NCBI RefSeq assembly: GCF_001620065.1
Contig: NZ_LQGV01000001.1
Location: forward strand, 1,178,001-1,242,000
Length of the DNA: 64,000 nucleotides
Source of the DNA: Microbacterium sp. TNHR37B
GTDB taxonomy: Bacteria; Actinomycetota; Actinomycetes; Actinomycetales; Microbacteriaceae
Direction: 5' to 3'
Shown: positions 13,506 through 28,234 of the stretch, in pieces
How positions within the stretch are numbered: position 1 is the stretch's first letter
How the letters are laid out: every line of letters starts with the position of its first letter
Position numbers and translations under genes: made by a program
The notes under the pieces: model-generated
Databases searched by the model: none
Told to the model about the DNA's origin: nothing
Seen by the model: the letters and a program-made list of their open reading frames with translations, nothing else

Positions 13506-14318
13506 TTACCCGTCCGTCGCTCGCTCGTCGAGAACGAAGAGAGTCCCGAGCGGCGCGGCGAGCGCACGGGTCACAGTCGCCTCGTCGAGGAGCCCCCGAC
13601 CGGCAAGGATCCGTAGGGCGTCGTCGCGGTCGGCCAGGATCGCGGCCCGCTCCACCTCGGGGATGCTCCGCGCGGCCCGCTCGGCCACGAGCCGCTCGCT
13701 CATCGTCGTCGGCGTGAGGGGGGCGATCTCCGGTTCCGGATCACGCACGCGGTAACGACGCGCCGTCGCGACGGTGAGCACGAGGCCGAGAACGAGCGTG
13801 GCCCAGACCGGGATCTGCATGATCGTCGAGAGGTCATAGCCATCGCGGCCCGAGACGGTCGGCATGCTGATGGAGGAAAAGAGTCCGCACAGCGCGGAGA
13901 CCGCCCCGATGCCGCACACCATCCCCGACCACCGGGCGCCGCTTCGCACCCAGAGGACACCCGTGACGAGGAGTACCAGCGCGGCGACGACGAAGCACAC
14001 GGCGGCGATCGGCACTGATGTCTCGGCCGGGATGCGGTCGATGAGGTACGACTCCGCGCCGAGCACAGAAACCCCCGCGACGGGGGCGATCAGTGCGGCG
14101 ATGGCGAGAGCGACGGCGATCCCGGTGAGGGCGCGCCGAACGCGGCTGGGCGTGCGCCGACCCAGCAGCTCCGCGATCGCGGCACCGTCGCGACCGAACG
14201 TCGCGACCACCTCGGGATGCGCCTGGCAGGCCACCGCCTCGAGCAACCCGAGTCGCGGAGTCTCGGACGCCGAACGAGCCTCGGCCCATGATCGTGCGTC
14301 GGGATGAGTGAGCGTCAT
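13506..14318 (-). CDS. Membrane protein of unknown function
   Basis: 270 residues. An N-terminal soluble part of ~60 residues contains a CQAHPEVVATFGRDGAAIAELLG motif. Four to five transmembrane helices follow (ALTGIAVALAIAALIAPVAGV, VPIAAVCFVVAALVLLVTGVLWV, GMVCGIGAVSALCGLFSSI, IPVWATLVLGLVLTVA), then a charged C-terminal tail. The start overlaps the stop of the lipoprotein gene (ATGA), so the two are co-translated. No family recognised. Confidence 0.65.
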   Translation of the reverse strand: MTLTHPDARSWAEARSASETPRLGLLEAVACQAHPEVVATFGRDGAAIAELLGRRTPSRVRRALTGIAVALAIAALIAPVAGVSVLGAESYLIDRIPAETSVPIAAVCFVVAALVLLVTGVLWVRSGARWSGMVCGIGAVSALCGLFSSISMPTVSGRDGYDLSTIMQIPVWATLVLGLVLTVATARRYRVRDPEPEIAPLTPTTMSERLVAERAARSIPEVERAAILADRDDALRILAGRGLLDEATVTRALAAPLGTLFVLDERATDG

Positions 14319-15025
14319 GATCCTGCTCCGTACGGCGCGACGGGGAGATCGGTCGTCGTGGGCGGCGGGTCGATGGGCGTACCGTCCTCATTCCAGTAGA
14401 CGGGGCTGCCGTCCTCGGGGAAGTAGAACCGTGGCTGCCAGTCGGTGCCCTCGAAGGCGGGGAGGCGGCGCGCGAGCCCGGGGTACGAGACGCCGGCGAA
14501 CACCATGTCCGACAGGTCCGCGGCGTCGCCGGCGAAGCACCCGGGCTCGGCGGTCACCCGGATCGTCCCGCGCGCAGGACGGATCGTCACCACCCCGCGC
14601 ACCACCGCACCGCCCGTAGCGATCACGTTGACCTCCTCGCGGTCGCCTGCGCCATACGTGGCCGTCGTCACCGTCATATCGGCATCCTCGAATGCGGCGG
14701 AGGCCGCGGCGACGATCGTGTCGACCTCGAGGTCGTCCTTCTTCAGCACGCGGGCCCAGGAAAAGGCGTAGCCCGCTCCGCCGCCGTCGGTGCGGCAGGG
14801 AATCGGCGAGGCGCCCCACGAGCCCTGGTCGACGTCCCACCTCCCCTCGTGGATCGCCATGATCACCGAGTGCATGGTCGTCGCGTAAGAGTCGTACCGG
14901 TCCTGTCCGTCTCGGTAGAGCGCGTCTCCCGTCGGCACCTGTGTCGTCGACGCGCACGCCGTGACGGTCATCAGCGTGCCCGCCGCCAGGGCCGCCGTCA
15001 GCACCCGCCGCATCCCGTTGCGCAT
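14315..15025 (-). CDS. Putative lipoprotein of unknown function
   Basis: 236 residues starting at MRNGMRR, chosen because it gives a normal signal peptide; a longer reading to 15055 adds ten residues with no ribosome site. Lipobox TVTAC with Cys24. Residues ~60-150 read as an envelope-domain pattern with a conserved-looking IPCRTDGGGAGYAFSW. The C-terminus is Pro/Thr rich. Coupled (ATGA) to the downstream membrane-protein gene, suggesting a common envelope complex. Function unknown. Confidence 0.65.
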   Translation of the reverse strand: MRNGMRRVLTAALAAGTLMTVTACASTTQVPTGDALYRDGQDRYDSYATTMHSVIMAIHEGRWDVDQGSWGASPIPCRTDGGGAGYAFSWARVLKKDDLEVDTIVAAASAAFEDADMTVTTATYGAGDREEVNVIATGGAVVRGVVTIRPARGTIRVTAEPGCFAGDAADLSDMVFAGVSYPGLARRLPAFEGTDWQPRFYFPEDGSPVYWNEDGTPIDPPPTTTDLPVAPYGAGS

Positions 15026-15192
15026 CTCACCGCCGTCCGATCCGATGCCGAGCACGACGCAGGCGTCGCTCGGCCACCCGTCGCTCCTCTCGCGAAATCT
15101 CCGCGTGCTGCCACCTTAACGACCCCTCTCCACGTCCTCGATGGGGACAACTCCCCTCCGCCCGTCGCCCCGCGGCGCGGCGCCCCCCTCGG

Positions 15193-15990
15193 TCAGGAGG
15201 CGTCGAACGAGCCGGTGAGGTCCGGCCGCGGAGCCATTCCCATCCCCAGCATCCCGAGCGGCCGGTCGCGCGCCCGTTCGATCTGGTCGGGAGAGACGAC
15301 CGCCCTCTTCTCGAGCTCGTCGAACGCCGCACGCAGATCGGCGGACACCCGCTCCCGCTCCGCCGCGGGAACCGCTTCCATCGCCGTCTTGAGCCGTGCC
15401 ATGTTTCGCGTCCACCGCGCCGCGTTCACGTCTCCCGGTCGCCGGAACATGACGAGATGGACCACTCCGGTCGCCACATCCCCCGCGATGAGCAGCAGAG
15501 CGAGGGGCACGTCCGCTTTCCCCGCCGCGAAGGCCGCCGTTCCGATCAGGAACGCGATGGTGGAGGGGATCAGGTGCAGCCACCCCAGAAGACGGGCGGA
15601 TGAGGCGTCGACGAGTTCACGCCGGCGAAGGTTGCTCACCAGTCCGGGCGTCACGAGGAGGGCGGCGATCAGGGCCATGATCCCGACCATGAGGACCGAA
15701 GCGGTGCGATCCGGGCGGAACACCCATCCGAACAGCGCGAGCATGCCGAGAACCGGCAGCGTCAGGGCGCCGATCGGGATGAAGACTCCGAGACATCCGC
15801 CTCCGGGGGCGCCTTCGGGCTCTCTGGCGAGATCCTTCCAGACATCTGCGGGCGAGAAGTAGGCCAGGGCGCGACGCACCGACAACGTCCGCTCCCACGC
15901 CCGAGCCTCCAGCCGCCACCAGTTGTTCGGCTGCCAATCGGTGACGCTGCGGGCGAAGCGCGTCGCCGGCCCGTCGGTCACCTCTTCCAT
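15193..15990 (-). CDS. Membrane protein of unknown function
   Basis: 265 residues. A soluble N-terminus, then five likely transmembrane helices between residues ~65 and ~190, and a long amphipathic C-terminal helix (MARLKTAMEAVPAAERERVSADLRAAFDELEKRAVVSPDQIERARDRPLG). That last part resembles a short regulatory coiled region. Same strand as the two genes downstream but separated by about 170 bp, so it may be its own unit. No family recognised. Confidence 0.6.
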   Translation of the reverse strand: MEEVTDGPATRFARSVTDWQPNNWWRLEARAWERTLSVRRALAYFSPADVWKDLAREPEGAPGGGCLGVFIPIGALTLPVLGMLALFGWVFRPDRTASVLMVGIMALIAALLVTPGLVSNLRRRELVDASSARLLGWLHLIPSTIAFLIGTAAFAAGKADVPLALLLIAGDVATGVVHLVMFRRPGDVNAARWTRNMARLKTAMEAVPAAERERVSADLRAAFDELEKRAVVSPDQIERARDRPLGMLGMGMAPRPDLTGSFDAS

Positions 15991-16252: not shown

Positions 16253-19200
16253 TCAGCGCGACAGGACGACGTCGGCGAGTTCTCTGCCGAGGAGGCGCCG
16301 GTCTCCGATCGGATACCCCGTGTGTATCGCGGCGGCCTCTCCCCAGGAATGGACGGACAACTGCGGCGCGCAGACCAGGTCCCCGAAAGCGCAGTGCTGA
16401 ACCGAGCGGTCGACCAATCCGGAAGACAGCGACCAGTTCGCCATGATGCTGTCCTCCAGCAGCTCCTGCCCAATGACCGTCGCGGCGACACCGTTCCCCT
16501 CCTGGTCCGCGAGCACGTCGGGGATGTCGAGGTCGGCCCTGCGAAGCGGGTCGGCGAGGTAGGCCACTCCGCGAATGTTGTCGACAGCGGTCGACGAGAG
16601 CACGGTGAGGACGGAGAGGGTGGCGTGGATCACCCATGCCCCCTGCGAGTATCCGGCCAGCACGATCTTCTGATCCGCGCCGCATTCATCGAGGACCCTG
16701 CCGATCTGTGCGTTGAGCACGGTCACCCCCACCTCGGCGCCGGGAACATACCGCAGGATGTCCACGGCCACATCCCCGAGGCTGTCGGCGTCAGGATTGT
16801 TGAACGGCACAGGATGGGCCGGATAGCTCAGCGCGATCACATCGATCGTGCTGGTTGGCTCCACTGTGGCAAGCCTCTCCGCAAAGCCCAAGACGACCTG
16901 CTGGATCAGGCCGAGGCCTGGTGGCTCGCCCGACCCACGCACTCCGATGAGCACGTAATCGGCGCAACTCCCCGGCGCCGGCACCGGACGCACGTCGCTC
17001 CCCTCGACCCCCGGCTCGTAGCGCGTCCCGGCCCATGGCAGGTAGTCGACATCACCCACGATGCGAGGATTGCCGCGCACGCCCGGTGGCAGATTGCTGC
17101 CCCACTGGACTCCCCTCGCATCGAACGTCCCCGACGTCCGCGTGCGGATCGACTCGACACCGATGTCGCATCCCGTGACGGACCCCGAGAAGAACGCATC
17201 CGCCGGGGCGTCCTCCACCCTCACACAGCGCGACGCGTCGAACTCGATCCGAGAGTCGGAGACCTGTAACCACTGCGGCTCCGTCGCTCCCAAGGAGGCG
17301 TACTTCATGTGCAGATGTGATGCCTCCAGCACCCCGCCCCTGTTCACGCCGATGCCGTTCCAGTCGCCGGCCGCGGGATCGCGCCAGTTGCCTTCGGTAT
17401 CGACGTAACGACTCGCATCCTGGTCATACAGAGACGTGAAGAACACCGGTTCGTCGGAGGTGCCCTCGATGAGGAGGGTGCCGTGAACGACCAAACCCCC
17501 GTTGATCGACGGGATCACCGTGCCCTCGCGGATGGTGAGCGTGACGTGTGGCCGTACCTCCAGACTCCGGCCGTGATCGGGGATCGCGCCGAGGCTCACA
17601 TCGAGCGGGCCTAACGGGAACGTCGTGTCACCCTCGAGGCGTCCGGCGATGGACATGAGGTTGATCTCGTTGCTCGTCCCCACGTTGTCGACGAGCTTCG
17701 CGCCGTCCAGGTTGTACCCGAAGATCTGCATGGCGAGGAAGGAGTCGGTGACGTGATTGCGGCGGACGGTCGGGGTCGTGTAGTCGGCGGACGGCCCGCC
17801 TGCCTCGTCGTACAGATTGCCCACGGCAATACCTACGCCGCCGACGCGCTGGACGACGTTGTCCTCGATAACGATGGTCGCGTCCTCGTTGTATGCAGCG
17901 GAATCGACGGCGATGCCCGTCCACTGTGCATCGGATATCGAGGAATGACGCACCTCGAAGCGCTCCGCCCACCCCGACGCGATCCCCGTACGCGCGTACC
18001 GCACCCGGACGCCGTCCATCACGAGGACCGCACCGTCGGCCGCCGTCACACCCCACCAGTCCGAAGCCCCGGGCCCCACGTCCGCTTCGCCCGGGACGGA
18101 TGCGCCATCTCGAAGGGAGGTGAACGTGATCGGTTGATCGGGAGGCGCTACCGCCCACAGCTCACCGTCGACGGAGATCTGCGCGTTCAGCGCCCGCACC
18201 GTCGTCCCCGGCATGATGTCCAATGTCACGCCACGATCCACACCGAGCCCGGCAGACTCGACGCCCTTGGCGTACACCCCTACCGGGAGTTGACCCAACG
18301 GAAAGACGGTGTCGCTGACCAGGGTGCCGGAGAGGGCGATGAGATCCAGCCCATTGCCGTGCCCCGTGTTCCCGGTGAGGTTGCCTCCTCGCAGCTCGCC
18401 GTTGGCGACGACGATCGCCTCGTTCTCACAGCCGACGACGCTGTTGTCTCGCACCACGGGAGAGTAGGTGGGTCCCGGCCCGTAGTACTCGCCGTCGGCG
18501 TGGAGCCAGATCCCGGCATCGCCGCAGCGGTCGACGCTCACATCTTCGATGCGCACTGCCGTGGTCTTGCCAGGTTCGGTGTGCGGAGCGAGGTCCACCC
18601 CGGAGCCGGTGAGGTCCGCCACGGTCGCGTCCGAGAGGTCGAGCACCCGGGGCTGCTCCCCTGTGATGCCCGTCGTGGCGAAGCGCACCTCCACATGGGA
18701 GGCGGTGAAGGAGCCACCGGGCGCGACCCGGAGACCGGCCCAGTCGCCGGCCGCCGGCGGCGCGGCGCGCTCGGTCGGAAGCACTCCGGCTCGCGGGTCG
18801 AGCGTCGACGTGAACGTGACGGCGTCCTGTGCGGTGCCGATCGCGGTCAGCGTGCCCTCCACCGTCAAGCTGCCTCCGAGGGAGGCGATCGTGGCGTGCG
18901 GCCCGATGTCGAGAGCGGCGCCGCTGGCGATGGTGACGTCACCGTCGAGGATGTACGTCGTGGGCACCGTCGGTGTCCACGACGCGTTCTGGGTGATCTC
19001 GCCCGAAACCCGGGTGACCGTCGTGACCGGACCCTCGGGGAGCTTTGCCACGCGAACCGCAGCGCTCACGCGGGCAGCCGGGGCGTAGCCCTCCCTGGTG
19101 CCGGTGACAGCGACCGAGATGAGCGCATCCGAGTCCGCGGGGCCAAGAGTGAGTCGCGTAGCCGTCGCCCCAGGGATATCGACGCCGTTCCGTCTCCACT

Positions 19201-20239
19201 GGTAGGTCAGCGTCGCGGTCGGCGACCACGTGCCCGGGTCCACGCTGAGGATGTCGCCGACGGCGGCGGTTCCGGTGATCGTGGGGGTGGGAGCCGTGCG
19301 GAAGGCCGCGGCCGTCACGATCTGGGTCGCGCTGGTCCTCGACGTGGTGGCGTATCCGGCGCGCGACCCGGCCACGGTGACGGAGACGGTCTTGCCCACG
19401 TCGGCCACCGCGAGCGCGTATGTGCGCTGCACCGCTCCTCGGATGGCCGCTCCATTGCGTTTCCACTGGTACGAGAAGGCCGCCGCCGGTGCCCAATCTC
19501 CCGGGTCAGCGGAGAGCACGGCGCCCATGACGGGTGAACCCGTCACTTTCGGCGTCGGCGAGGTGGTGAAAGCGGCGCTTCCGGCGACCTTCGAGCCGCT
19601 GGTCTTCGACGTCGTCACGTAACCCGCCCGAGAGCCCGTGACGGTGACCGCGATGTGGGCACCCACGTCCGCCGATGCCACGGTGTACGTGCTGGACTTC
19701 GCCCCCGGGATCGCCTTTCCGTTGCGCTTCCACTGGTACGAGAAGGTCGGTTTCGGAGACCACGTTCCCGGCCGTGTCGTCAGCCGTGCCCCGAAAACGG
19801 GCTGGCCAGAGATCACAGGTGTGGGGGCCGACGAGAAGGCCGCTTTCTTGACGGTCTTCGCGGCACTGGTCCGAGACGTCTTGACGTATCCGGATCGACT
19901 GCCCGTGACGGTCACCGCGACATTCTTGCCGGCATCCGCTGCGACGATCTTGTACGACCTCGACCTGGCGCCGGAGATGGGTTTGCCGTTTCGCAACCAC
20001 TGATAGCGAAGATCCGCCTGGGGCGACCACGTGCCCGGCTTCACGGAGAGGCTTTCGCCGACCATTGCCGTCCCCGAGACGGTGGGCTTGGGTGCCGCGC
20101 GAAACGCCTTCCCCCCGGCCGCTGCTTCCGCAGGCGAGACGATGAAAGATGTCAGCACGATCGCCGCAGCGACCGCGAGAGCGACCAGACGCAGCCACGC
20201 AGTGCGTCGCGACGGCGCCACGTCAATCACATGAGACAC
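16253..20239 (-). CDS. Secreted multidomain protein: four Ig-like repeats, beta-helix, cutinase-type esterase
   Basis: 1328 residues from a GTG six bases behind GGGGAGG; an upstream extension to 20479 lacks a ribosome site. Signal peptide ~1-41 ending SPAEAAA. Then four repeats of 89 residues (PGTWSP...YQW.RNG..I.GA...Y...ADVG....TVTGSR.GY.T..TS), then ~690 residues of right-handed beta-helix/NosD-like repeats, and last ~240 residues of cutinase: start SCADYVLIGVRGSGEPPG, nucleophile GYSQG, Asp in CAFGDLVC, His in IHTGYP. All triad residues are present. No sortase motif or C-terminal helix, so it is likely released or wall-associated. A surface or polymer esterase is inferred. Confidence 0.85.
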   Translation of the reverse strand: MSHVIDVAPSRRTAWLRLVALAVAAAIVLTSFIVSPAEAAAGGKAFRAAPKPTVSGTAMVGESLSVKPGTWSPQADLRYQWLRNGKPISGARSRSYKIVAADAGKNVAVTVTGSRSGYVKTSRTSAAKTVKKAAFSSAPTPVISGQPVFGARLTTRPGTWSPKPTFSYQWKRNGKAIPGAKSSTYTVASADVGAHIAVTVTGSRAGYVTTSKTSGSKVAGSAAFTTSPTPKVTGSPVMGAVLSADPGDWAPAAAFSYQWKRNGAAIRGAVQRTYALAVADVGKTVSVTVAGSRAGYATTSRTSATQIVTAAAFRTAPTPTITGTAAVGDILSVDPGTWSPTATLTYQWRRNGVDIPGATATRLTLGPADSDALISVAVTGTREGYAPAARVSAAVRVAKLPEGPVTTVTRVSGEITQNASWTPTVPTTYILDGDVTIASGAALDIGPHATIASLGGSLTVEGTLTAIGTAQDAVTFTSTLDPRAGVLPTERAAPPAAGDWAGLRVAPGGSFTASHVEVRFATTGITGEQPRVLDLSDATVADLTGSGVDLAPHTEPGKTTAVRIEDVSVDRCGDAGIWLHADGEYYGPGPTYSPVVRDNSVVGCENEAIVVANGELRGGNLTGNTGHGNGLDLIALSGTLVSDTVFPLGQLPVGVYAKGVESAGLGVDRGVTLDIMPGTTVRALNAQISVDGELWAVAPPDQPITFTSLRDGASVPGEADVGPGASDWWGVTAADGAVLVMDGVRVRYARTGIASGWAERFEVRHSSISDAQWTGIAVDSAAYNEDATIVIEDNVVQRVGGVGIAVGNLYDEAGGPSADYTTPTVRRNHVTDSFLAMQIFGYNLDGAKLVDNVGTSNEINLMSIAGRLEGDTTFPLGPLDVSLGAIPDHGRSLEVRPHVTLTIREGTVIPSINGGLVVHGTLLIEGTSDEPVFFTSLYDQDASRYVDTEGNWRDPAAGDWNGIGVNRGGVLEASHLHMKYASLGATEPQWLQVSDSRIEFDASRCVRVEDAPADAFFSGSVTGCDIGVESIRTRTSGTFDARGVQWGSNLPPGVRGNPRIVGDVDYLPWAGTRYEPGVEGSDVRPVPAPGSCADYVLIGVRGSGEPPGLGLIQQVVLGFAERLATVEPTSTIDVIALSYPAHPVPFNNPDADSLGDVAVDILRYVPGAEVGVTVLNAQIGRVLDECGADQKIVLAGYSQGAWVIHATLSVLTVLSSTAVDNIRGVAYLADPLRRADLDIPDVLADQEGNGVAATVIGQELLEDSIMANWSLSSGLVDRSVQHCAFGDLVCAPQLSVHSWGEAAAIHTGYPIGDRRLLGRELADVVLSR
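19040..20105 (-). repeat. Four tandem 267-bp in-frame Ig-like repeats
   Basis: The PGTWSP-type segment recurs near 20025, 19757, 19490 and 19222, i.e. every 267-268 bp (89 codons), within the secreted esterase gene. The first three copies are more similar to each other than the fourth, whose ending is diverged. Such repeats are prone to copy-number change. Confidence 0.85.
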
Positions 20240-20563
20240 GACGGACCTCCCCAGATCCGGCACGCCCCCAGAAGCTGAGCGAGCAGAAGTCGATGGGGCT
20301 CCCCACGATGCCCCCTCCCGCACCATACTGGAGCGCCCGTCGGACCTGCAATCAGAGGCTGCGTCCCCCTTCTTCAGTTCACATGCAGAGTGGCGGAACC
20401 GGTCGTGAACCACCACCACGCGAAGGCGGCTGCAGTGAGAACGGCGACCGACGCCACCATCCACACGGAGTGGTCCCATGCCGCGCGATGCCTGTTTGCG
20501 GAGCGATCTGCACGCGACCTCGCCGAGTGGGACTCAGGCTCTCTGCCCCGCAAGGTCAGAAAA
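20240..20563. other. Gap: leader of the esterase gene and a doubtful 109-aa reading frame
   Basis: Holds the esterase ribosome site (GGGGAGG near 20244-20250) and, on the minus strand, a reading frame (20374-20703) whose last 30 residues form one good membrane helix (VWMVASVAVLTAAAFAWWWF). It overlaps the 3' end of the next gene by 140 bp and has no visible ribosome site, so it is not called as a gene. Sequence becomes more AT-rich from here to the right. Confidence 0.4.
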
Positions 20564-21274
20564 TCAAGGACTCGCCGGCCGTGGCAGTCTAGTTCTGGCG
20601 GCAGCCTCCATCGATGCGGCGGACCGCGATTTCCAGGCTTTGCGGATAGGGCTTTTGGCTTCGCGCGTCGTGGGGAGTGGATCGGCGGATCGGAGGACCG
20701 CAAGGCTGTCCGGAAAATCGCCTTCGCCCGTCCAACGGATCAGCTCGTTTGCGATCGCGCGTAGATCGCTGTTGGCTGGCGCGAGTGCTTGCCTCAAGGC
20801 GTGGCCCATTGCTTCATCCGTGATTGATGGGTCTGACGCTAGAACGCTGCGCCCCACCGCCCAAAGGGCATCTCGCTCTTTGAGGCGCGCCACGGCAACA
20901 TGCGCATTGAAGTGGGGAAAGTAGATCGTAGCCTCGACCTTGGCAGTGTTGGCGAGGTCGACATCCAGTGGCTTCGACGTACTGCGCAGTAATGCGCCGA
21001 GCTCACGATTGGAGTAGTCGCGATTAGACAGGGCAATCTGCGCGAGCAACCGACCTATGCCCGCCGCGGCGACGGAGAGCTTCTCCTGCTGAGCGATGCG
21101 CTGCGTCTCCTTTCGCTCGTCTTCAGCGAGCTTGCGATCCGCCACGAGCTGCCGCTTGAGGATCAAGAAGGCGACTGCGATCGCAGCGGTCCCACCGGCT
21201 AACCCTTGGAGCAGGCCCGCGGTCCAGGCGCCGTCCGTTACGGCGCGCATGAACTCATTCCACCACTCGGTCAT
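20564..21274 (-). CDS. Membrane-anchored coiled-coil protein, unknown
   Basis: 236 residues with AGGAAG 5 nt before ATG. One N-terminal membrane helix (AGLLQGLAGGTAAIAVAFLIL, about residues 19-39), then a charged helix KRQLVADRKLAEDERKETQRIAQQEK that should form a coiled coil, then a mostly helical cytosolic domain. No catalytic motif. Codon use is less GC-biased than in the core genes to the left. Lies at the left edge of the accessory island; could be an island-borne sensor or effector but nothing in the sequence proves it. Confidence 0.6.
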   Translation of the reverse strand: MTEWWNEFMRAVTDGAWTAGLLQGLAGGTAAIAVAFLILKRQLVADRKLAEDERKETQRIAQQEKLSVAAAGIGRLLAQIALSNRDYSNRELGALLRSTSKPLDVDLANTAKVEATIYFPHFNAHVAVARLKERDALWAVGRSVLASDPSITDEAMGHALRQALAPANSDLRAIANELIRWTGEGDFPDSLAVLRSADPLPTTREAKSPIRKAWKSRSAASMEAAARTRLPRPASP

Positions 21275-21453
21275 CTTTGCTTCCTGCCGCTCGCACTAGT
21301 TGACGTGATGGAATGTTATCGGACCTGACGTCCCGGGAAGGCGATGCATCTTCAGCATGGACGAACGCATGGGGTCGCCTAGCCGACCATCCCTCTCTGC
21401 TTTCGTCGGGATGTTAAGGCGCTGCGGGAACGCTCTCGTGTCACGATAGACGG

Positions 21454-22521
21454 ATGACGGCAGACAATACGAGCAGCGGGGCTGAGGAGCCCCTCAGCGT
21501 TGCTTGCGATGAGTCGGGAAACGATGGGGAAAACCTCCTCGCCGGAGGTTCCCGTTTCTTTGTCCACGCGAGTGTGACAATCAGCGACCTGGATGCCACG
21601 GCGATCATGGCTGAGGTTCGATCACAAACCGGGAGCCAGAGTGTCGAGCTCAAGTCCAAGACGCTGCTGCAGAGGAAAGACGAAGCAACCGCGAGATGGT
21701 TGTTGGAGCTTCCGGAGCTGAGGGACCATGCGTCCCTGCATATCACCGACAAACGGTACTTCCTCGTCTCGAAGCTGTTCGATGCCACGATCGAAGAACT
21801 CGCTCACGAGGACGAGTACGACATGTTCGCTGACGGCGCCGCGCTCTGTGGCGCGAACATTCTGTTCTTCACCTCCCCGGCTCTCTTCGGCGAGCGGTGG
21901 GAAGCGCTGTTGGTCGCGTTTCAGAGCTTTCTTCGCGCCAGGTCGACCTCGGAAGCAGCGGCTACCCTCAGGACGTTCGACGGCCATGTTGTCGACGTGC
22001 TGGCCGCGGGTGTTTCGCCCGGCGACATGTTCTTCAGCCTGATTCATGCGGGCGTCAGACACCTGCGGACGCTCTCCCGGTTGCAGCTGGGTGAGGGCAT
22101 CGACCATCGGCTGCGCACTCTCGATCCCCTAATTCCTGCCCTCGGTGCTGCCGTCCTGCACTGGGCTACCCAGTCGGGTCGTCCGGTGGAGGTTTTGCAC
22201 GACGCCGCCAAGGAGTTGACTCCCGAACGCATCGAGGCGATGAGGAAACACTTGGCCGCGCCAGAGATCGTCTCCCCTAACCGAGCTGGAAAGGGCGTGG
22301 AACTCGTGAACGTCACTTTGGCCGATTCGAAGCTGGAAGCCAGAGTTCAGGTCGCGGATCTGTTGGCGGGGCTCGGCAGGAGTGTGCTCGAAGCGGAGAG
22401 CTATGGGAAGCGTCACCCGTTGACTCCACTTGTGGAGGGATTCATAAGCAGGCTGAGCGTGATACCAAACCCGGAAATGATGAACCCAGATACCGCGAAG
22501 GCTGTCGCTGAAAGCATGTGA
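21454..22521 (+). CDS. DUF3800 domain protein
   Basis: 355 residues. The N-terminal ACDESGN fits the xDESGx start of DUF3800. The next strand FFVHASVTI, the middle ELKSKTLLQRK and ITDKRYFLVSKLFDA, and the C-terminal VQVADLLAGLGR (QxADxxAG) are the other conserved blocks of this family, which has a nuclease-like/RNase H-like layout with acidic residues. Function is unproven; DUF3800 genes are frequent in defence and mobile islands. Converges on the SIR2 gene. Weak ribosome site before the ATG. Confidence 0.75.
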   Translation: MTADNTSSGAEEPLSVACDESGNDGENLLAGGSRFFVHASVTISDLDATAIMAEVRSQTGSQSVELKSKTLLQRKDEATARWLLELPELRDHASLHITDKRYFLVSKLFDATIEELAHEDEYDMFADGAALCGANILFFTSPALFGERWEALLVAFQSFLRARSTSEAAATLRTFDGHVVDVLAAGVSPGDMFFSLIHAGVRHLRTLSRLQLGEGIDHRLRTLDPLIPALGAAVLHWATQSGRPVEVLHDAAKELTPERIEAMRKHLAAPEIVSPNRAGKGVELVNVTLADSKLEARVQVADLLAGLGRSVLEAESYGKRHPLTPLVEGFISRLSVIPNPEMMNPDTAKAVAESM

Positions 22522-22779
22522 GCCGGCTTCAGCGGGCCGCGGGGCCGCCGCCCCGGAACAAAGCCGGATCCTGGCTCACGCTCTCGGGTCTGCCGCACTG
22601 GTAGGAGACATCTGGGTTGGGTTGCCCGGGCCTGATCGAGCGTTCGCCGACGTCGTCCGATACCATCGCGAGGGCCCCGTCACCGGCAACCTTGCAGAGA
22701 GACGCAGCTAGTGAGGCGGAAGGACCGAACTCGCGGTTCAGGACGACACTCGCCACTAGAAGCATCTACCCACACCGCA

Positions 22780-25700
22780 TTACGCATCCACCCAGGAGAG
22801 AGCTTCGTGGACGCCTCGTTGAACAGCGAGCTCAGCGAGTTGACGAAGTGAAGCAGGTGCAGCGTCCGCTTTCACTCGCTCGAAGAGCTGCTCTAGCTCG
22901 GAACGGATGTGCCAGTCGGCAGTTTCTGTTAGGCGCAATCTGGCAGTCACGACCCTGACGAGCAACTCGACGATCAGCTGAGTGCGCGCTGGGTCGAGGT
23001 GGTGGAATCTCGTGCGCGCACCGATAGCGCCGGGGCAGGACGTTGTGAGTGTCAGCGCATCCTCAGTCCCGAGTTCGAGAGCGAGGTCCCCCCAAGCGGT
23101 CCGCTCCTCAGGAGACTGAACGCCTGGCGCGGCCGCTTGGCGGGTGGCGATCGCACTTTCCAGCCAAGATGACCACAGACTCTCGCGACCTGCGTCGTCG
23201 AGGTCGGTCACGGCGTGACCCAACGCGCGGATGAATGCGACGAGTTGCCCCGCCCGCTGCGGGGTAGCCAAGTAGTCGATCAAGGCGAGTCGATCCACCG
23301 TGCTCGCGGTGGAGAATGCCGCGATCGAGGCGACTGTCGCCCAGTACCGCTCGGCCATGCCCTGGTCGCGGCCGGTCGCCGCATCCACTGAGCGTAGGAG
23401 AAGTTGCCAGAAACCTGCGTCGAGGAGATCGGGCGAAGTTCGGGGTTCGTGGAGGAAGCTGAACCACGCGTCCGGCGCGAACGCGGATACATCCGAGTCG
23501 AAAAGTGGGAACACGCGCGCAGCAGTGAACTGCGGGTCTGCGGCGAAGAGAAAGTGAAGCTTCCAGCTGAGAATGCTCGCGGCCGTATCTCGCGTGGAGG
23601 TTGGTGACGTCAGCATCAAACTGAACGCGCGACTTTCAATCTCAGTAAGACCCTCCCACTGCTCCGGCGCCGCCTGCCACCTTGCGGCGACGCGATTCAG
23701 CCAATACTGGGCGAGGATGCCTGGCCAGGTGTTCAGGCCTCGCATCAGCAAGTCGCTCCACCCGCCAGGATCAAACTCGGGCGCGTGCATCTCCCACAAC
23801 TCGACAGCGAGAGCGTCGAGCTTCTCCATCGCCAGCGGAACCAAGTCCCCTTCCGCGGGCTTTGACACGGAGTTCAGCACCTCACTCACAGGGCGAGCAA
23901 GCTCGGGTCTGACGCTCTGCTCTTCCAGGGCTCCGACCAGGTCGTTGATGCTCTCCAGTAGAACTGAGCTCTGACTCCATCCGTGCATGATCGCGCCGAG
24001 CAGGTCGTGGTGCCGCGCAAAGGGGGCGAGCATAACTTCCGGGAGCAACTGGAGACCGACCGATGGTTGCGCTGCAGCGGCCTCTCGTACGAGCTTGCAG
24101 GCGTCCTCCCACGTGGGGTCGTCGAAGTTTCGCTCCGAGTAGTCGAGGACAAGGAGCGATTGAACGCTGGCGCGCGCCCCATCCTCGCGCACCCGCGTGA
24201 GGAACTCGTCGACTGTCAGCGGCATCTTGCCGCCCCAGGTTCCTGAAGTCATGTAGTGATCGAGGTCTGGGTGAGTGCGGACTCCCATGTCTGGCTCATC
24301 TCGGCGGATGTCTGAGATGGCTGCGTCCAACTCCGGCCAGGGCGACTCGGCGTACCTGCTCAACCACTCAGCCCTGTCAAAGATCGCTCTGCGACGCGGG
24401 CGCGCATCCACCCCCTCGACGGGATCGTCATTTGGCGGGCCCGCGAGAACGGAAGCCAGCAACCGTTGTCTGGAGTCGGGACTCAGGTCGGGCGCCACAA
24501 GCTGAAGCAGACGAAACAGTTCATGCTTCGCTTCGGGGTCGTAGAGGAGGCCGCCGAGCACAGTGGCGCACTTCTCGTCACCGCTCAGGTGTGGGGATTC
24601 GGCAATGAGATGCAGTCCAAGTCTGCGAAAGAGAGCGTAGGGACTTGACAGCCACCGGGCCGAAAGGTCTGAACTGCTGGATCTCGCCCGCAAGGCGCTA
24701 TCACGAAGCATGTCAATGATCGTCCCCTCCTCATCGCTGAACCTGTCTTGCTCGTGCGGCTCGATCGCGGAACGACGAAAAGACCACGGGTCGAACGTAC
24801 GCTCGGGGTCGAACGCTCTCAGCAGTTCGTACGCATCGGTCAGCGCCTGTTCGGCGATCTGGAGCACGGTGTCAGCGATCTCCAGACCTTCCTCTGAGAC
24901 CTGCTCCCACAGCACCTTCAGGACGTCGTCTGAAGTCGCCCATTCAATCTCAGCCGACACCCGACGCGGCTGAGTCTCGTCCTCGTCGATGGGGAACCAG
25001 GGTCGGTCCTCTCTCAGAATGAGACGAGGCACGAGCGCGCGACGAAGTAAGGGAAGCGCGTCGCCACCAGAGAGTGGGTTGCCGTAGCCCTGGAACCAGC
25101 TGAGGCTCGACTCTGCAGGGTCGGTCCGCATAACGGCGGTCAGGATGGTCATCCAACGGCGCGCGTCTTCGGGAGCCGTCGATCGCAGACCCCGCGCAGC
25201 GCGGGAAATCTCCCACTGAAGCTCGGTAGAAACTACCGGCCCAAGCCTGGCGAGAGCGCCAAGCGCAAGCATCGAATACTCCGGTACCGCAACGTATTGG
25301 CTCACGAACCAGTCGGCCAACACCCGAGATGACTCGCTCTCGGCTCGCCCCACTTCGAACAACCTCCGGAACACGGGCTGCTCTTCCGCCCACCGCAACC
25401 ACTCGTAGCCAGTGGCCACCGCCGCAAATCCACGTGCTCCGGCCGGCGTGTTCAAGACATCAGCGAGGTAGTCCGCTTCCTCCGGCACCGCTGGCGGGCT
25501 CCCCGCAGCGATGTCCTTCGCTCGCGCGTAGTGCTCGAGAACGCCCATGTTCATCAGCGCCGCCCATGCCTCCAACGCGCGAGGCAAAGCCGCGTGCTCT
25601 TCGTCGCCTGGATAGGCGACCGGAGTGATCCGAAGGTTCTCCCATCGAGGACTGTCCGGCTCATGAGTGAGCGCGAACCGCGGTTGGGCGCTCGGTGGAA

Positions 25701-26328
25701 GCCCACGAGCGAGGTACGTCATCACAACATCACTGTGGCTGTAGCCGACGAACAGCACAGTCCGATGCTCAAAGAGGTCCTGCACGAACCGGCGAGCCCA
25801 ACCGTCCGTGAGGTATGCGCGCCCGAAGTCGTCGTCCGTGACAACGAGCTCGGCCGCGGGACGAGACGAGGCCCCGTGAAGGTAGACCAGACCTTGGAAA
25901 TCCTTCCCCAAGGGCACGGCCGGACCCGAGTACGTATCACCGAGCTCAAGGGACGCCTCTGCAGCCGCCTTCTGAACGTGGAGGTCGTAGTTTGTCGTCA
26001 CGATTGGCGCACCAATCGCAGCCGCGAGGCGGGCGAGTGCTAGGTGGTTCGCATTGGCACGCGACTCCGCGCTTCCGATGATTGCGCGCACGTGCTCCCT
26101 GACCAGCGGGTAGCTCTGAGTCAGCTGGCCCAGAAACCGATCGGGGCTCAACGTGGCGTCATACTCCACTCCGAGCGACCGAGCGATTTGCTGCGCAAGC
26201 CCGTCAAAGAGAGGGAGGTTGGACGGATCGTTCAACGACACACCGGCGCCCACAAATAGGACCAGGCGTCCATCGCGAGCTGCCGCCAGGAGAGCGTTAG
26301 GGATGTCGACGTGTTGGGTAATCCTCAC
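22780..26328 (-). CDS. SIR2-domain large protein, probable NADase defence effector
   Basis: 1182 residues from GTG with GAGAGGA 9 nt upstream. Residues ~15-240 form a SIR2_2 domain: FVGAGVS, IVTTNYD, YLHG with the catalytic His, and TVLFVGYSHSD. The remaining ~940 residues are helical, Trp-rich and unrecognised, the layout of DSR1/DSR2-type phage-defence proteins where SIR2 depletes NAD+ and the long C-terminal array senses phage proteins. The gene is in an AT-richer island beside DUF3800 and FRG genes and near a tRNA. Defence role is inference from architecture; NADase motifs are visible. Confidence 0.82.
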   Translation of the reverse strand: MRITQHVDIPNALLAAARDGRLVLFVGAGVSLNDPSNLPLFDGLAQQIARSLGVEYDATLSPDRFLGQLTQSYPLVREHVRAIIGSAESRANANHLALARLAAAIGAPIVTTNYDLHVQKAAAEASLELGDTYSGPAVPLGKDFQGLVYLHGASSRPAAELVVTDDDFGRAYLTDGWARRFVQDLFEHRTVLFVGYSHSDVVMTYLARGLPPSAQPRFALTHEPDSPRWENLRITPVAYPGDEEHAALPRALEAWAALMNMGVLEHYARAKDIAAGSPPAVPEEADYLADVLNTPAGARGFAAVATGYEWLRWAEEQPVFRRLFEVGRAESESSRVLADWFVSQYVAVPEYSMLALGALARLGPVVSTELQWEISRAARGLRSTAPEDARRWMTILTAVMRTDPAESSLSWFQGYGNPLSGGDALPLLRRALVPRLILREDRPWFPIDEDETQPRRVSAEIEWATSDDVLKVLWEQVSEEGLEIADTVLQIAEQALTDAYELLRAFDPERTFDPWSFRRSAIEPHEQDRFSDEEGTIIDMLRDSALRARSSSSDLSARWLSSPYALFRRLGLHLIAESPHLSGDEKCATVLGGLLYDPEAKHELFRLLQLVAPDLSPDSRQRLLASVLAGPPNDDPVEGVDARPRRRAIFDRAEWLSRYAESPWPELDAAISDIRRDEPDMGVRTHPDLDHYMTSGTWGGKMPLTVDEFLTRVREDGARASVQSLLVLDYSERNFDDPTWEDACKLVREAAAAQPSVGLQLLPEVMLAPFARHHDLLGAIMHGWSQSSVLLESINDLVGALEEQSVRPELARPVSEVLNSVSKPAEGDLVPLAMEKLDALAVELWEMHAPEFDPGGWSDLLMRGLNTWPGILAQYWLNRVAARWQAAPEQWEGLTEIESRAFSLMLTSPTSTRDTAASILSWKLHFLFAADPQFTAARVFPLFDSDVSAFAPDAWFSFLHEPRTSPDLLDAGFWQLLLRSVDAATGRDQGMAERYWATVASIAAFSTASTVDRLALIDYLATPQRAGQLVAFIRALGHAVTDLDDAGRESLWSSWLESAIATRQAAAPGVQSPEERTAWGDLALELGTEDALTLTTSCPGAIGARTRFHHLDPARTQLIVELLVRVVTARLRLTETADWHIRSELEQLFERVKADAAPASLRQLAELAVQRGVHEALSWVDA

Positions 26329-26706
26329 GTGCTGAGGTCCTCTCGGCCTGTGTGCGCCACGGTTTGCCGCGATCCAGGCCCGGCTGCTGCTGGGCCCGCG
26401 ACGAGAGTACTCGCCGTGTCGATTAGCGTCGCGGCGGCTCGGGTGCGCATGCGCTCATCGTACTGACGAGGTGGGCCAGCATCGGTGGTGTCGCCTTACG
26501 ATGGGCTCCTCGGCCAGAGAAGCGATGCTTCGGCTTGTGGGGACGAACAGGCGCTACACCGACGCTCTAGACGCACGGATGACGGTCGCGCACTGAAGTC
26601 TATGGTCGGGTCGGGATCGCTTTAGTAGTTGACGGCGTTGGAGCTGGGTCTCGATCGGTTCAAGCCTTACCCGGATTTTCGGACACCGCCTTCCCCCACC
26701 CATCTT
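26329..26706. other. Gap of 378 bp with no supported gene
   Basis: Lies between the SIR2 gene start and the FRG gene stop. The only open frames are under 35 codons. A promoter for the SIR2 gene should be within its right-hand 100 bp adjacent to 26329, but no convincing -35/-10 pair was picked. No tRNA or palindrome longer than ordinary background was noticed. Confidence 0.5.
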
Positions 26707-27588
26707 CTAGAGGGGTATGGTTCTCCCAAACCGTCTGGCGAAGCTCTGTATCGGGTGATCGGTCCACGCAATTGGATACACGGTCTCCGAGTCCAATCCG
26801 CTTCGGGAGACTAGCAACTCACGAAGGTACGGCTTAGAGGATCTCGGAATCTTGAAGCAAATGACTTCTGCAGTCCGTTGAGCAGGTTTCCCGCGCTGGC
26901 CCATTCGTGTCATACGTTTGGCGAGGAAGTCGGAGTCAACATCTCCGAGATTGAGATTCAGCGTCGACTCTTCATGTGGAGTAGTGAAAGCACCGAGGAT
27001 GAAGGAGCCGCGCTGGATCCTTAGGCGCTCCGCAACGTACGGGGGCCGATACCACAGATAGCCAGACTCGGACTGTGCCGCGACTTCAGTGTAAGAACGA
27101 TCGTCCACTGGCGAGATCCATCGATCTTCGGATGGGCGGAGAATTCCAAGGATGCGACCGTCAAGGTGGTCCTTCGAGCCGGCCTTCACGGGATCGTCGG
27201 CGTCCGCGAACACAGCCATCCAAAAAGCGATCAACGGGTCGACTGAAACGTCGAGCAACGGCGTCGCTGCGCCATAGTGCTGCAGATGCGCCAATAGTGC
27301 AAGGTCTGGGTAACTGCGATCCGAAGGCGACCGGTCCAAGCCCGCAGCCCGCGCCTTATCCAGCAGAGTGGTCGTATGCTCACGAGTCGTGGCTTGCGCA
27401 TCGTGCAGTGCCGTGCCGTCGCCGAGAACGCGCGTGTGCATTCCTGGTTCGAGTCGATACCGATCCTCTGCCTCGCCACGCCAGAGCCACACTTCCTCCT
27501 TGAAAGTAACGTGCATGTGCTGAACAGCAGACAGCACCTGGCGAGCCTTGTGCTCCGGGGTAGTAGATCGCGGCGTCCATATGAGCAT
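26707..27588 (-). CDS. FRG-domain protein
   Basis: 293 residues starting at MLIWTPRS, chosen because AGGAGAG lies 8 nt upstream; a longer frame to 27756 has no ribosome site. FRG signatures are clear: VWLWRGE at about residues 33-39 and LLAHLQHYGAATPLLDVSVDPLIAFWMAVF at about 97-126, followed by ERLRIQRGSFILGAF, another family block. FRG proteins are of unknown biochemistry but recur in defence islands. Base composition is clearly lower in GC than the chromosome on either side. Probably its own transcription unit. Confidence 0.8.
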   Translation of the reverse strand: MLIWTPRSTTPEHKARQVLSAVQHMHVTFKEEVWLWRGEAEDRYRLEPGMHTRVLGDGTALHDAQATTREHTTTLLDKARAAGLDRSPSDRSYPDLALLAHLQHYGAATPLLDVSVDPLIAFWMAVFADADDPVKAGSKDHLDGRILGILRPSEDRWISPVDDRSYTEVAAQSESGYLWYRPPYVAERLRIQRGSFILGAFTTPHEESTLNLNLGDVDSDFLAKRMTRMGQRGKPAQRTAEVICFKIPRSSKPYLRELLVSRSGLDSETVYPIAWTDHPIQSFARRFGRTIPL

Positions 27589-28234
27589 CAGTACTTCTCT
27601 CCTGACGTTTGCTGTGATCAAGGGGTGCTTGCGGTGAGCGTCAAACACCGTGACCAGGCGGAGGTGACTGCTGCTCAAGCATGGCATCCGATTGGCGTCT
27701 CCGCGGAGCGGCCCACTGAACGTGCGCCGTTGACATATGGGCTCGGTTGTCAGCAACGCCGGCGGGCTCTCCTCTGGACGTTCGGTCGGAGCAGCGCATC
27801 GTTGTCAGCGACAACGTCCAGACCGGTCGCAACGAGCAACTCACGGGCGTCGAGAATCACACGCAGCGGGCCTTGCGCGCCATCCGCGACGAGTAACTAT
27901 CGCTGTGTTTGTGAGCGACAGTGGCAGGTCGCGTGCGTGTCCACCGGCAACGGCGACCTCACCCTCCCCCGGGAAACGACCGCAGTCGGGCTCAAGGCCA
28001 CCGAGTCGCCGACGAGTCCGCGGGCGATCCCCCTCCGGGCGCGAGCCACACCCGCCAGCACCACCCGCCTGCGGCGGCACTAGCATTCTCAGCGCTCACG
28101 AAACGATCGAACGCGCCTGGAGACCGGGCGCCAGGACCGCAAACGGCCCAAAACACCGACGGACACCCGCACGATGCGAGTGCCCGTCTAGCTTTCGGCC
28201 GGTTCTGCGAATAGTCTCACCGACGGCCCAACGG
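27589..28234. other. Gap between FRG gene and tRNA-Thr, possible gene remnant
   Basis: About 650 bp with no intact gene. On the plus strand, 27720-27896 (stop TAA 27894-27896) is an open frame of 58 codons whose end SEQRIVVSDNVQTGRNEQL...RAIRDE looks protein-like but has no start; a protein-like stretch just upstream is in a different frame. Together they may be the decayed 3' end of an island gene. Unrecognised. Frames that run on through the tRNA are artefacts. Confidence 0.3.

What the first reader, a model, noticed from the sequence alone, without database searches (positions are those of the whole stretch)
16253..20239. Giant secreted protein: four Ig-like repeats, beta-helix, cutinase-type esterase
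Cutinases are normally small single domains. Here an intact triad (GYSQG, Asp in CAFGDLVC, His in IHTGYP) sits at the end of a 1328-residue chain behind tandem repeats and a beta-helix, an arrangement I do not recall. The beta-helix and repeats could bind a polymer or a cell surface.
Basis: partly seen in the sequence, partly recalled or inferred. Interest (0 to 1): 0.6.

Follow-up and report, generated by a model that had tools for sequence, protein, structure and literature searches.

The report
Rod-mounted cutinase with exchangeable tips
A Microbacterium species encodes a very long exported protein that carries a cutinase-type ester-cutting enzyme at the end of a rod of repeats, and relatives carry the same kind of rod with other end pieces, so the enzyme looks like one of several exchangeable tips.

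Summary
Window 16253-20239 (-) encodes 1328 residues: export signal (by eye), four Ig-like repeats, right-handed beta-helix, C-terminal cutinase domain with intact triad (Ser1198, Asp1287, His1306). AlphaFold gives a confident cutinase fold (pLDDT 85.3; Z about 20 to cutinase-like enzymes). The genus is Microbacterium.

The architecture is not unique: I read, whole or in part, 13 such proteins (Microbacterium, Herbiconiux, two unnamed genera of the family); 9 of 295 Microbacterium genomes carry one. In two genomes with about 89% identical scaffolds at one site, one ends in a cutinase, the other in an unrelated domain, and the downstream flanks are 95% identical. Beta-helix blocks vary in number; some tandem copies are DNA-identical. 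Four relatives have wall-binding CWB2 domains; the window protein has none.

Best reading: an exported, probably wall-associated rod presenting an esterase to a contacted surface. Substrate unknown. A toxin-immunity pair is weakened: no partner gene travels with the tip at the shared site. The papers searched do not describe it.

The parts
16253..20239 (-). whole gene, 1328 aa plus stop
20246..20250 (-). GGAGG, likely ribosome-binding site, six bases before the GTG start
   Evidence: read
20120..20239 (-). likely export signal, residues 1-40 (by eye)
   Evidence: sequence; no predictor was run
19838..20104 (-). Ig-like repeat 1, residues 46-134
19571..19837 (-). Ig-like repeat 2, residues 135-223
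   Evidence: Ig_2 sub-threshold
19304..19570 (-). Ig-like repeat 3, residues 224-312
19034..19303 (-). Ig-like repeat 4, residues 313-402
17039..19033 (-). right-handed beta-helix region with three diverged blocks, residues 403-1067
   Evidence: PF13229 38.4 bits; all-beta model of moderate confidence
16256..17038 (-). PWAG junction (residue 1068) and cutinase domain to the C-terminus
   Evidence: PF01083 residues 1091-1295; model pLDDT 85.3; fold match
16646..16648 (-). codon of nucleophile Ser1198 in GYSQG
16379..16381 (-). codon of Asp1287 in GDLVC
16322..16324 (-). codon of His1306 in AIHTGYP

Best explanation
The gene encodes an exported modular esterase. The Ig-like repeats serve as spacer and perhaps wall-binding region, the beta-helix is a rod, and the C-terminal cutinase domain is the active tip, presented away from the cell to cut ester bonds in a polyester or lipid of a contacted surface (plant cutin or suberin, or lipids of another organism). 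It belongs to a Microbacteriaceae family in which rod length changes by tandem duplication and the tip is exchanged as a cassette. Shown here by sequence: architecture, triad, recurrence, tip exchange, stronger purifying selection on the tip than on the neighbouring rod. Predicted: the fold. Inferred: enzyme activity, wall association, outward presentation, substrate.
For: Cutinase profile and fold with an invariant triad. In four close pairs dN/dS is 0.085, 0.135, 0.121 and 0.202 in the cutinase domain against 0.203, 0.141, 0.254 and 0.382 in the last beta-helix part. CWB2 domains stand N-terminal of the beta-helix in L163, which has a cutinase tip, and in L260, L261 and L263. The same Ig repeat lies in eight other open frames of this genome, with M23, S8 and CAP, GH53 and LRR_5 domains. 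Tip exchange between L206 and L036 with matching flanks. DNA-identical tandem rod blocks in L034 and L036.
Against: The window protein has no CWB2 or other known anchor in Pfam, so it may simply be released. No activity or binding was measured. Fold scores for cutinase-like, acetyl xylan esterase and mycobacterial phospholipase/thioesterase structures are tied (Z 20.3, 20.2, 19.6, 19.5), so the substrate class is open. The rod model is of moderate confidence (pLDDT 75.6, pTM 0.59, six rows). One of the four pairs shows nearly equal dN/dS in tip and rod (0.135 and 0.141), and dS is above 1 in most comparisons.
Confidence: 0.55

Rival explanations
1. A polymorphic-toxin-like weapon: a surface rod with exchangeable C-terminal warheads, the cutinase being a membrane-lipid-cutting one, with protection from a neighbouring gene (in the window perhaps 15193-15990 or the lipoprotein 14315-15055).
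For: Exchangeable C-termini on a long stalk. In the window three genes downstream on the same strand are related to genes in a type VII secretion array of G021 (60%, 42% and 66% identity), and defence-type genes lie upstream. Lipase-like hydrolases are known polymorphic-toxin domains (passages of PMC3482391).
Against: Across the L206/L036 exchange the downstream flank is 95.2% identical over the 1166 bases matched, so no partner gene moved with the tip. The three window genes have no relative in the ten other scaffold loci searched (L035, L039, L046 and L054 were not in that search), and in G045 the relative of the 265-aa gene lies about 787 kb from the cutinase gene. The protein seems to have a general export signal rather than a type VII one (by eye). 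No paper held both 'cutinase' and 'polymorphic toxin'.
Confidence: 0.15
2. A polysaccharide de-esterase: the tip is an acetyl-xylan-esterase-like member of CE5, and the beta-helix and Ig repeats hold acetylated plant or microbial polysaccharide.
For: Acetyl xylan esterase 1bs9 scores Z 19.6, tied with the best cutinase-like match; the same Ig repeat is attached to a GH53 enzyme in this genome.
Against: The best sequence matches are to cutinase-like enzymes (2czq E 3.1e-7, 7cc4 E 3.6e-5; the first acetyl xylan esterase, 1bs9, E 0.067). No carbohydrate-binding module was found by Pfam in the window protein.
Confidence: 0.15
3. Remodelling of the cell's own envelope lipids, as proposed for mycobacterial cutinase-like proteins.
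For: Rv3802c (5w95) is a close fold match, Z 19.5, and is reported to have phospholipase A and thioesterase activity (abstract of PMC2625445).
Against: Only 9 of 295 Microbacterium genomes carry the protein, and its tip is exchanged for others: not what a housekeeping role would show. That Microbacterium has no mycolic acids is recalled, not tested.
Confidence: 0.08

Closest known systems
Cutinase family PF01083 / CE5: Cryptococcus cutinase-like enzyme 2czq, Pseudozyma antarctica enzyme 7cc4, Fusarium solani cutinase 1oxm
   Same: Fold (Z 20.2, 20.3, 18.2), GYSQG nucleophile, Asp and His motifs, four conserved Cys
   Different: Here the domain is the C-terminal end of a 1328-residue chain; the crystallised proteins are about 190-215 residues
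Mycobacterial cutinase-like proteins (Rv3802c 5w95; MSMEG_6394 3aja)
   Same: Fold, Z 19.5 and 18.5
   Different: The mycobacterial relatives placed in the tree group apart from the tips, with 90/87 support, which the tree tool does not mark as strong
Short secreted Microbacterium cutinases and N-terminal cutinase fusions (L002-L019, L031, L062, L064, L086, L118, L119)
   Same: PF01083 or relatives by tblastn
   Different: Nine short ones form their own group with 100/99 support; in the fusions the cutinase comes first in the chain
Polymorphic toxins (PMC3482391, passages only)
   Same: Variable C-terminal domain behind a long stalk
   Different: No partner gene linked to the tip at the shared site; 'cutinase' does not occur in the held text of that paper
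Fibrillar adhesins (PMC9210967, passages only)
   Same: A stalk of repeats on an exported protein
   Different: The end domain is an enzyme; no known adhesive domain was found; 'cutinase' does not occur in that paper's text

Membership tests
Cutinase PF01083 / CE5 | Profile score above the curated cut-off | tested here: met
   51.9 bits against 25.9
Cutinase PF01083 / CE5 | Cutinase alpha/beta-hydrolase fold | tested here: met
   Predicted model pLDDT 85.3, pTM 0.87; Z 20.3 to 7cc4, 18.2 to 1oxm; a prediction, not a solved structure
Cutinase PF01083 / CE5 | Ser-Asp-His triad in order, GYSQG nucleophile, four conserved Cys | tested here: met
   9 of 9 tips; triad in 49 of 49 rows. Contact distances were not measured
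Cutinase PF01083 / CE5 | Small single-domain enzyme (usual, recalled) | tested here: not met
   1328 residues with other domains; the size is typical rather than defining
Cutinase PF01083 / CE5 | Hydrolysis of cutin | not testable with these tools
   needs an assay
Acetyl xylan esterase (CE5) | Fold closer to acetyl xylan esterase than to cutinase | tested here: inconclusive
   1bs9 Z 19.6 against 20.3 for 7cc4: tied within 1
Right-handed beta-helix PF13229 | Profile score above the curated cut-off | tested here: met
   38.4 bits against 25.9
Right-handed beta-helix PF13229 | Helix fold confirmed against solved structures | tested here: inconclusive
   The cutinase part filled the fold-search lists; no sequence match in PDB
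CWB2 wall-bound proteins PF04122 | CWB2 domains in the window protein | tested here: not met
   Not among the five families listed at E up to 10; present in L163, L260, L261 and L263
Polymorphic toxin system | Variable C-terminal domain on a conserved scaffold | tested here: met
   Three tip types and one precise exchange
Polymorphic toxin system | Immunity gene next to the toxin | tested here: not met
   No linked gene at the shared his/trp site. In the window alone there are immunity-like neighbours, untested
Polymorphic toxin system | Toxicity to competitors | not testable with these tools
   needs an assay
Fibrillar adhesin | Stalk of repeats | tested here: met
   Four Ig-like repeats and a beta-helix region
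Fibrillar adhesin | Known adhesive domain or surface anchor | tested here: inconclusive
   None by Pfam in the window protein; an anchor type is seen only in relatives

The most novel reading that the evidence does not exclude
An undescribed Gram-positive tip-exchange system: Microbacteriaceae display wall-bound beta-helix rods whose length changes by exact tandem duplication and whose C-terminal end is swapped as a cassette between at least three unrelated domain types (cutinase, tip B, tip C). The cutinase is the lipid- or polyester-attacking version, used for contact-dependent attack on, or attachment to, another organism's surface, without a linked immunity gene.
Probability: 0.25. Interest if true: 0.72.

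Novelty: new variant of a known kind. Interest (0 to 1): 0.52.

Why it matters
If right, surface rods in a common environmental genus carry interchangeable enzyme or binding tips, one of them a cutinase. Natural variants at one chromosomal site that differ in the tip make it directly testable what such tips act on. The tips are also a group of likely polyester- or lipid-cutting enzymes apart from the short secreted cutinases of the same genus.

Tried and rejected
One-off architecture: rejected, 13 proteins read whole or in part. Capture of the genus's own short cutinases as tips: not favoured, the two separate in the tree, though L162 and L031 sit on long branches of unsure place and the ungrouped row L056 lies in the same open fork as the tips. 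Toxin-immunity pair: weakened, not excluded. Phage origin: no relative confirmed in viral contigs (a single pattern, so diverged ones could be missed). The window domain alone found no relative in genome contigs; an alignment query with one pattern found 153, of which 80 were kept. A plasmid search found 6 records, Rhodococcus and Gordonia, under 60% identity, 5 of them annotated as cutinase family. Tip B: nothing in PDB better than E 0.4; Pfam and NCBIfam gave no family at tips B or C in the proteins scanned (L261 was not in the NCBIfam scan). The rod fold was barely tested, because the cutinase part filled the lists. Tandem Repeats Finder does not list periods above 500, so it missed the 723- and 843-base blocks; I compared them directly. 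A WXG100 query found nothing in the own genome, without a positive control in that call. Dropped before tips were counted: L209, L210 and L262 (weak matches that looked by eye like another beta-helix protein with a membrane end) and L259 (an in-frame TGA is reported at its match). Weak matches in G304, G456, G493, G512, G588, G589, G610, G672 and G448 contig 49 were not fetched. Five short cutinases tried for the tree (L005, L007, L010, L013, L015) gave no row. The ORF picker is home-made; his, trp, lgt, WXG100 and similar gene names there were recognised by eye.
Full report
What is there. Window 16253-20239 (-) encodes 1328 residues from a GTG start with GGAGG six bases before it. A likely export signal (by eye) is followed by four 89-residue Ig-like repeats (residues 46-402), about 665 residues of right-handed beta-helix, a PWAG junction at 1068 and a cutinase domain. 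The repeats share 0.50 mean identity against 0.09 in shuffles. The domain scores 51.9 bits against PF01083 and the beta-helix 38.4 against PF13229, both over a cut-off of 25.9. The triad is Ser1198, Asp1287, His1306; with four Cys it is invariant in nine aligned tips. The own genome, 3.52 Mb in four contigs, has no other cutinase match.

Fold. AlphaFold on 49 aligned sequences gave pLDDT 85.3 and pTM 0.87. VIA-align: 7cc4 Z 20.3 (189 residues, 2.9 A), 2czq Z 20.2, acetyl xylan esterase 1bs9 Z 19.6, mycobacterial Rv3802c (5w95) Z 19.5, Fusarium cutinase 1oxm Z 18.2; Foldseek's best is 2czq, E 1.3e-10. The first four lie within 1 Z unit, so the fold does not tell cutin, acetyl-ester and phospholipid substrates apart. 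The phmmer alignment to 2czq puts GDLVC on GDGVC and the His of IHTGYP on that of QHLSYP. A longer model of rod plus tip (residues 402-1328, six rows) is mostly short strands in the rod part, pLDDT 75.6 and pTM 0.59; it finds the tip fold again but says little about the rod.

Recurrence. PF01083 matches occur in 30 of 295 Microbacterium genomes, 27 over the cut-off, in different kinds of protein: open frames of about 300 residues, an N-terminal cutinase before VWA and PKD domains (L031), and the Ig/beta-helix/cutinase type. Reading open frames gave 13 of the last type: the window, L032, L034, L035, L036, L037, L039, L041, L046, L052 (Herbiconiux oxytropis), L054, L162 and L163. L035 and L046 are cut by contig ends and L054 has masked stretches; L039 was seen in part. 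Nine of the 295 Microbacterium genomes carry it. Numbers of Ig repeats and beta-helix blocks vary. In L034 and L036 neighbouring blocks of 723 and 843 bases are 100% identical in one pair and 97.0% and 97.9% in the next; both lie in genomes listed with one contig.

Exchangeable tips. A profile of the beta-helix block (A2) matched 13 of 295 Microbacterium genomes, 11 of them with E under 1e-15, and 19 of 398 genomes of the family. Of the 11 strong ones 9 end in a cutinase; G009 (L207) stops within the beta-helix, and G103 (L206) ends in another domain. Nine further open frames were fetched. Together they show tip B, about 145 residues with conserved Cys, in L206, L258 and L263, and tip C in L208, L260 and L261; L207, L255, L256 and L257 have no clear tip. 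L206 and L036 are 89.5% identical in DNA through the Ig part and into the beta-helix, then blastn finds no similarity over about 820 bases of L206, and similarity returns at 95.2% about 20 bases (L206) and 30 bases (L036) past their stop codons. This is the pattern of a cassette exchange. Seven loci lie at one his/trp site (genes named by eye: L032, L034, L035, L036, L046, L206, L207). There TrpB is 85-99% identical, while cutinase tips are 77-80% identical within groups and 30-38% between three groups; fast divergence could explain part of that.

Tree. In a tree of 37 domains the 13 tips need one change of label (support 77/91; 79% of bootstrap trees), apart from nine short Microbacterium cutinases (100/99). 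That support is moderate, and the ungrouped row L056 lies in the same open fork. The Herbiconiux tip lies within Microbacterium tips (98/97), and L163, of another genus, groups with L036 and L046 (100/99), so tips have probably moved between genera. L162 is a long branch of unsure place.

Selection. In four pairs the cutinase domain has dN/dS 0.085, 0.135, 0.121 and 0.202, against 0.203, 0.141, 0.254 and 0.382 for the adjacent beta-helix part. One pair is nearly equal, and dS is above 1 in most comparisons, so the values are rough.

Surface. Four relatives carry two or three CWB2 domains N-terminal of the beta-helix: L163 with a cutinase tip, and L260, L261 and L263 with other tips. L260 and L263 also match clostridial S-layer SlpA, far below its cut-off. 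In the window's genome the same Ig repeat lies in eight other open frames: with M23, S8, CAP and carboxypeptidase-regulatory-like domains, one with Ig matches only, and with GH53 and LRR_5. So the repeat is a general module of exported proteins here, and the N-terminal part is the likely cell-side end. The window protein itself has no CWB2.

Surroundings. Upstream lie SIR2 (Dsr1-like), FRG and DUF3800 genes in a stretch of lower G+C. Downstream on the same strand three genes within 13506-15990 have relatives (66%, 42% and 60% identical) in what looks by eye like a type VII secretion array of G021; a WXG100 query found nothing in the own genome, with no positive control. None of the ten other scaffold loci searched (L032, L034, L036, L037, L041, L161, L162, L163, L206, L207) has these relatives. 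A toxin-immunity pair is possible here but weak.

Literature. Searches for cutinase with beta-helix and Ig-like, with Microbacterium, cutinase-like with domain architecture, cutinase domain with von Willebrand, Microbacteriaceae with beta-helix, cutinase-like protein with Rv3802c or CE5, cutinase with polymorphic toxin (0 papers) and Microbacterium with Ig-like domain showed no description of this family in the rows listed; several lists were cut short. I saw listings only, except term passages of PMC9210967, PMC3482391 and PMC8577158 (of 151 putative cutinases 41 are bacterial, 32 of them mycobacterial; 'multidomain' does not occur) and the abstract of PMC2625445. Most subscription papers and all bioRxiv preprints are not held.

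Verdict. A real and recurrent architecture with an enzyme tip kept by selection, one member of a modular rod family with exchangeable tips. What the tip cuts is the open question.

Noticed in passing
window 20564-27756: Defence-type island of lower G+C beside the gene: SIR2-domain protein 22780-26328 (PADLOC Dsr1, E 3.6e-57), FRG-domain protein 26707-27756 (PADLOC PDC-S15, E 8.9e-17) and DUF3800 protein 21454-22521.
   Followed up: partly
window 13506-14318, 14315-15055, 15193-15990 (-): Three genes related to genes in a type VII secretion-like array of another Microbacterium (66%, 42% and 60% identity in L274), while a WXG100 query found nothing in this genome: perhaps orphan immunity genes.
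   Followed up: partly
L274-L278: Arrays that look by eye like type VII secretion loci, with repeated WXG100-like genes and several copies of the 265-aa membrane-protein family, in Microbacterium.
   Followed up: no
L206, L258, L263 (tip B); L208, L260, L261 (tip C): Two further C-terminal domain types on the same scaffold, without a Pfam match in the proteins scanned.
   Followed up: partly
L033 (G169 contig 4, 3000-22900): A cutinase match inside an open frame of 4566 aa in another Microbacterium, with a long run of repeats that look Ig-like by eye after it; a different giant architecture.
   Followed up: no
L034 4271-10339 and L036 4080-10295: Neighbouring beta-helix blocks that are 100% identical in DNA over 723 and 843 bases, a likely place for copy-number change.
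   Followed up: partly
L207 and L259: Scaffold genes whose frame ends within the beta-helix (L207; L259, with an in-frame TGA reported): perhaps tip loss.
   Followed up: no
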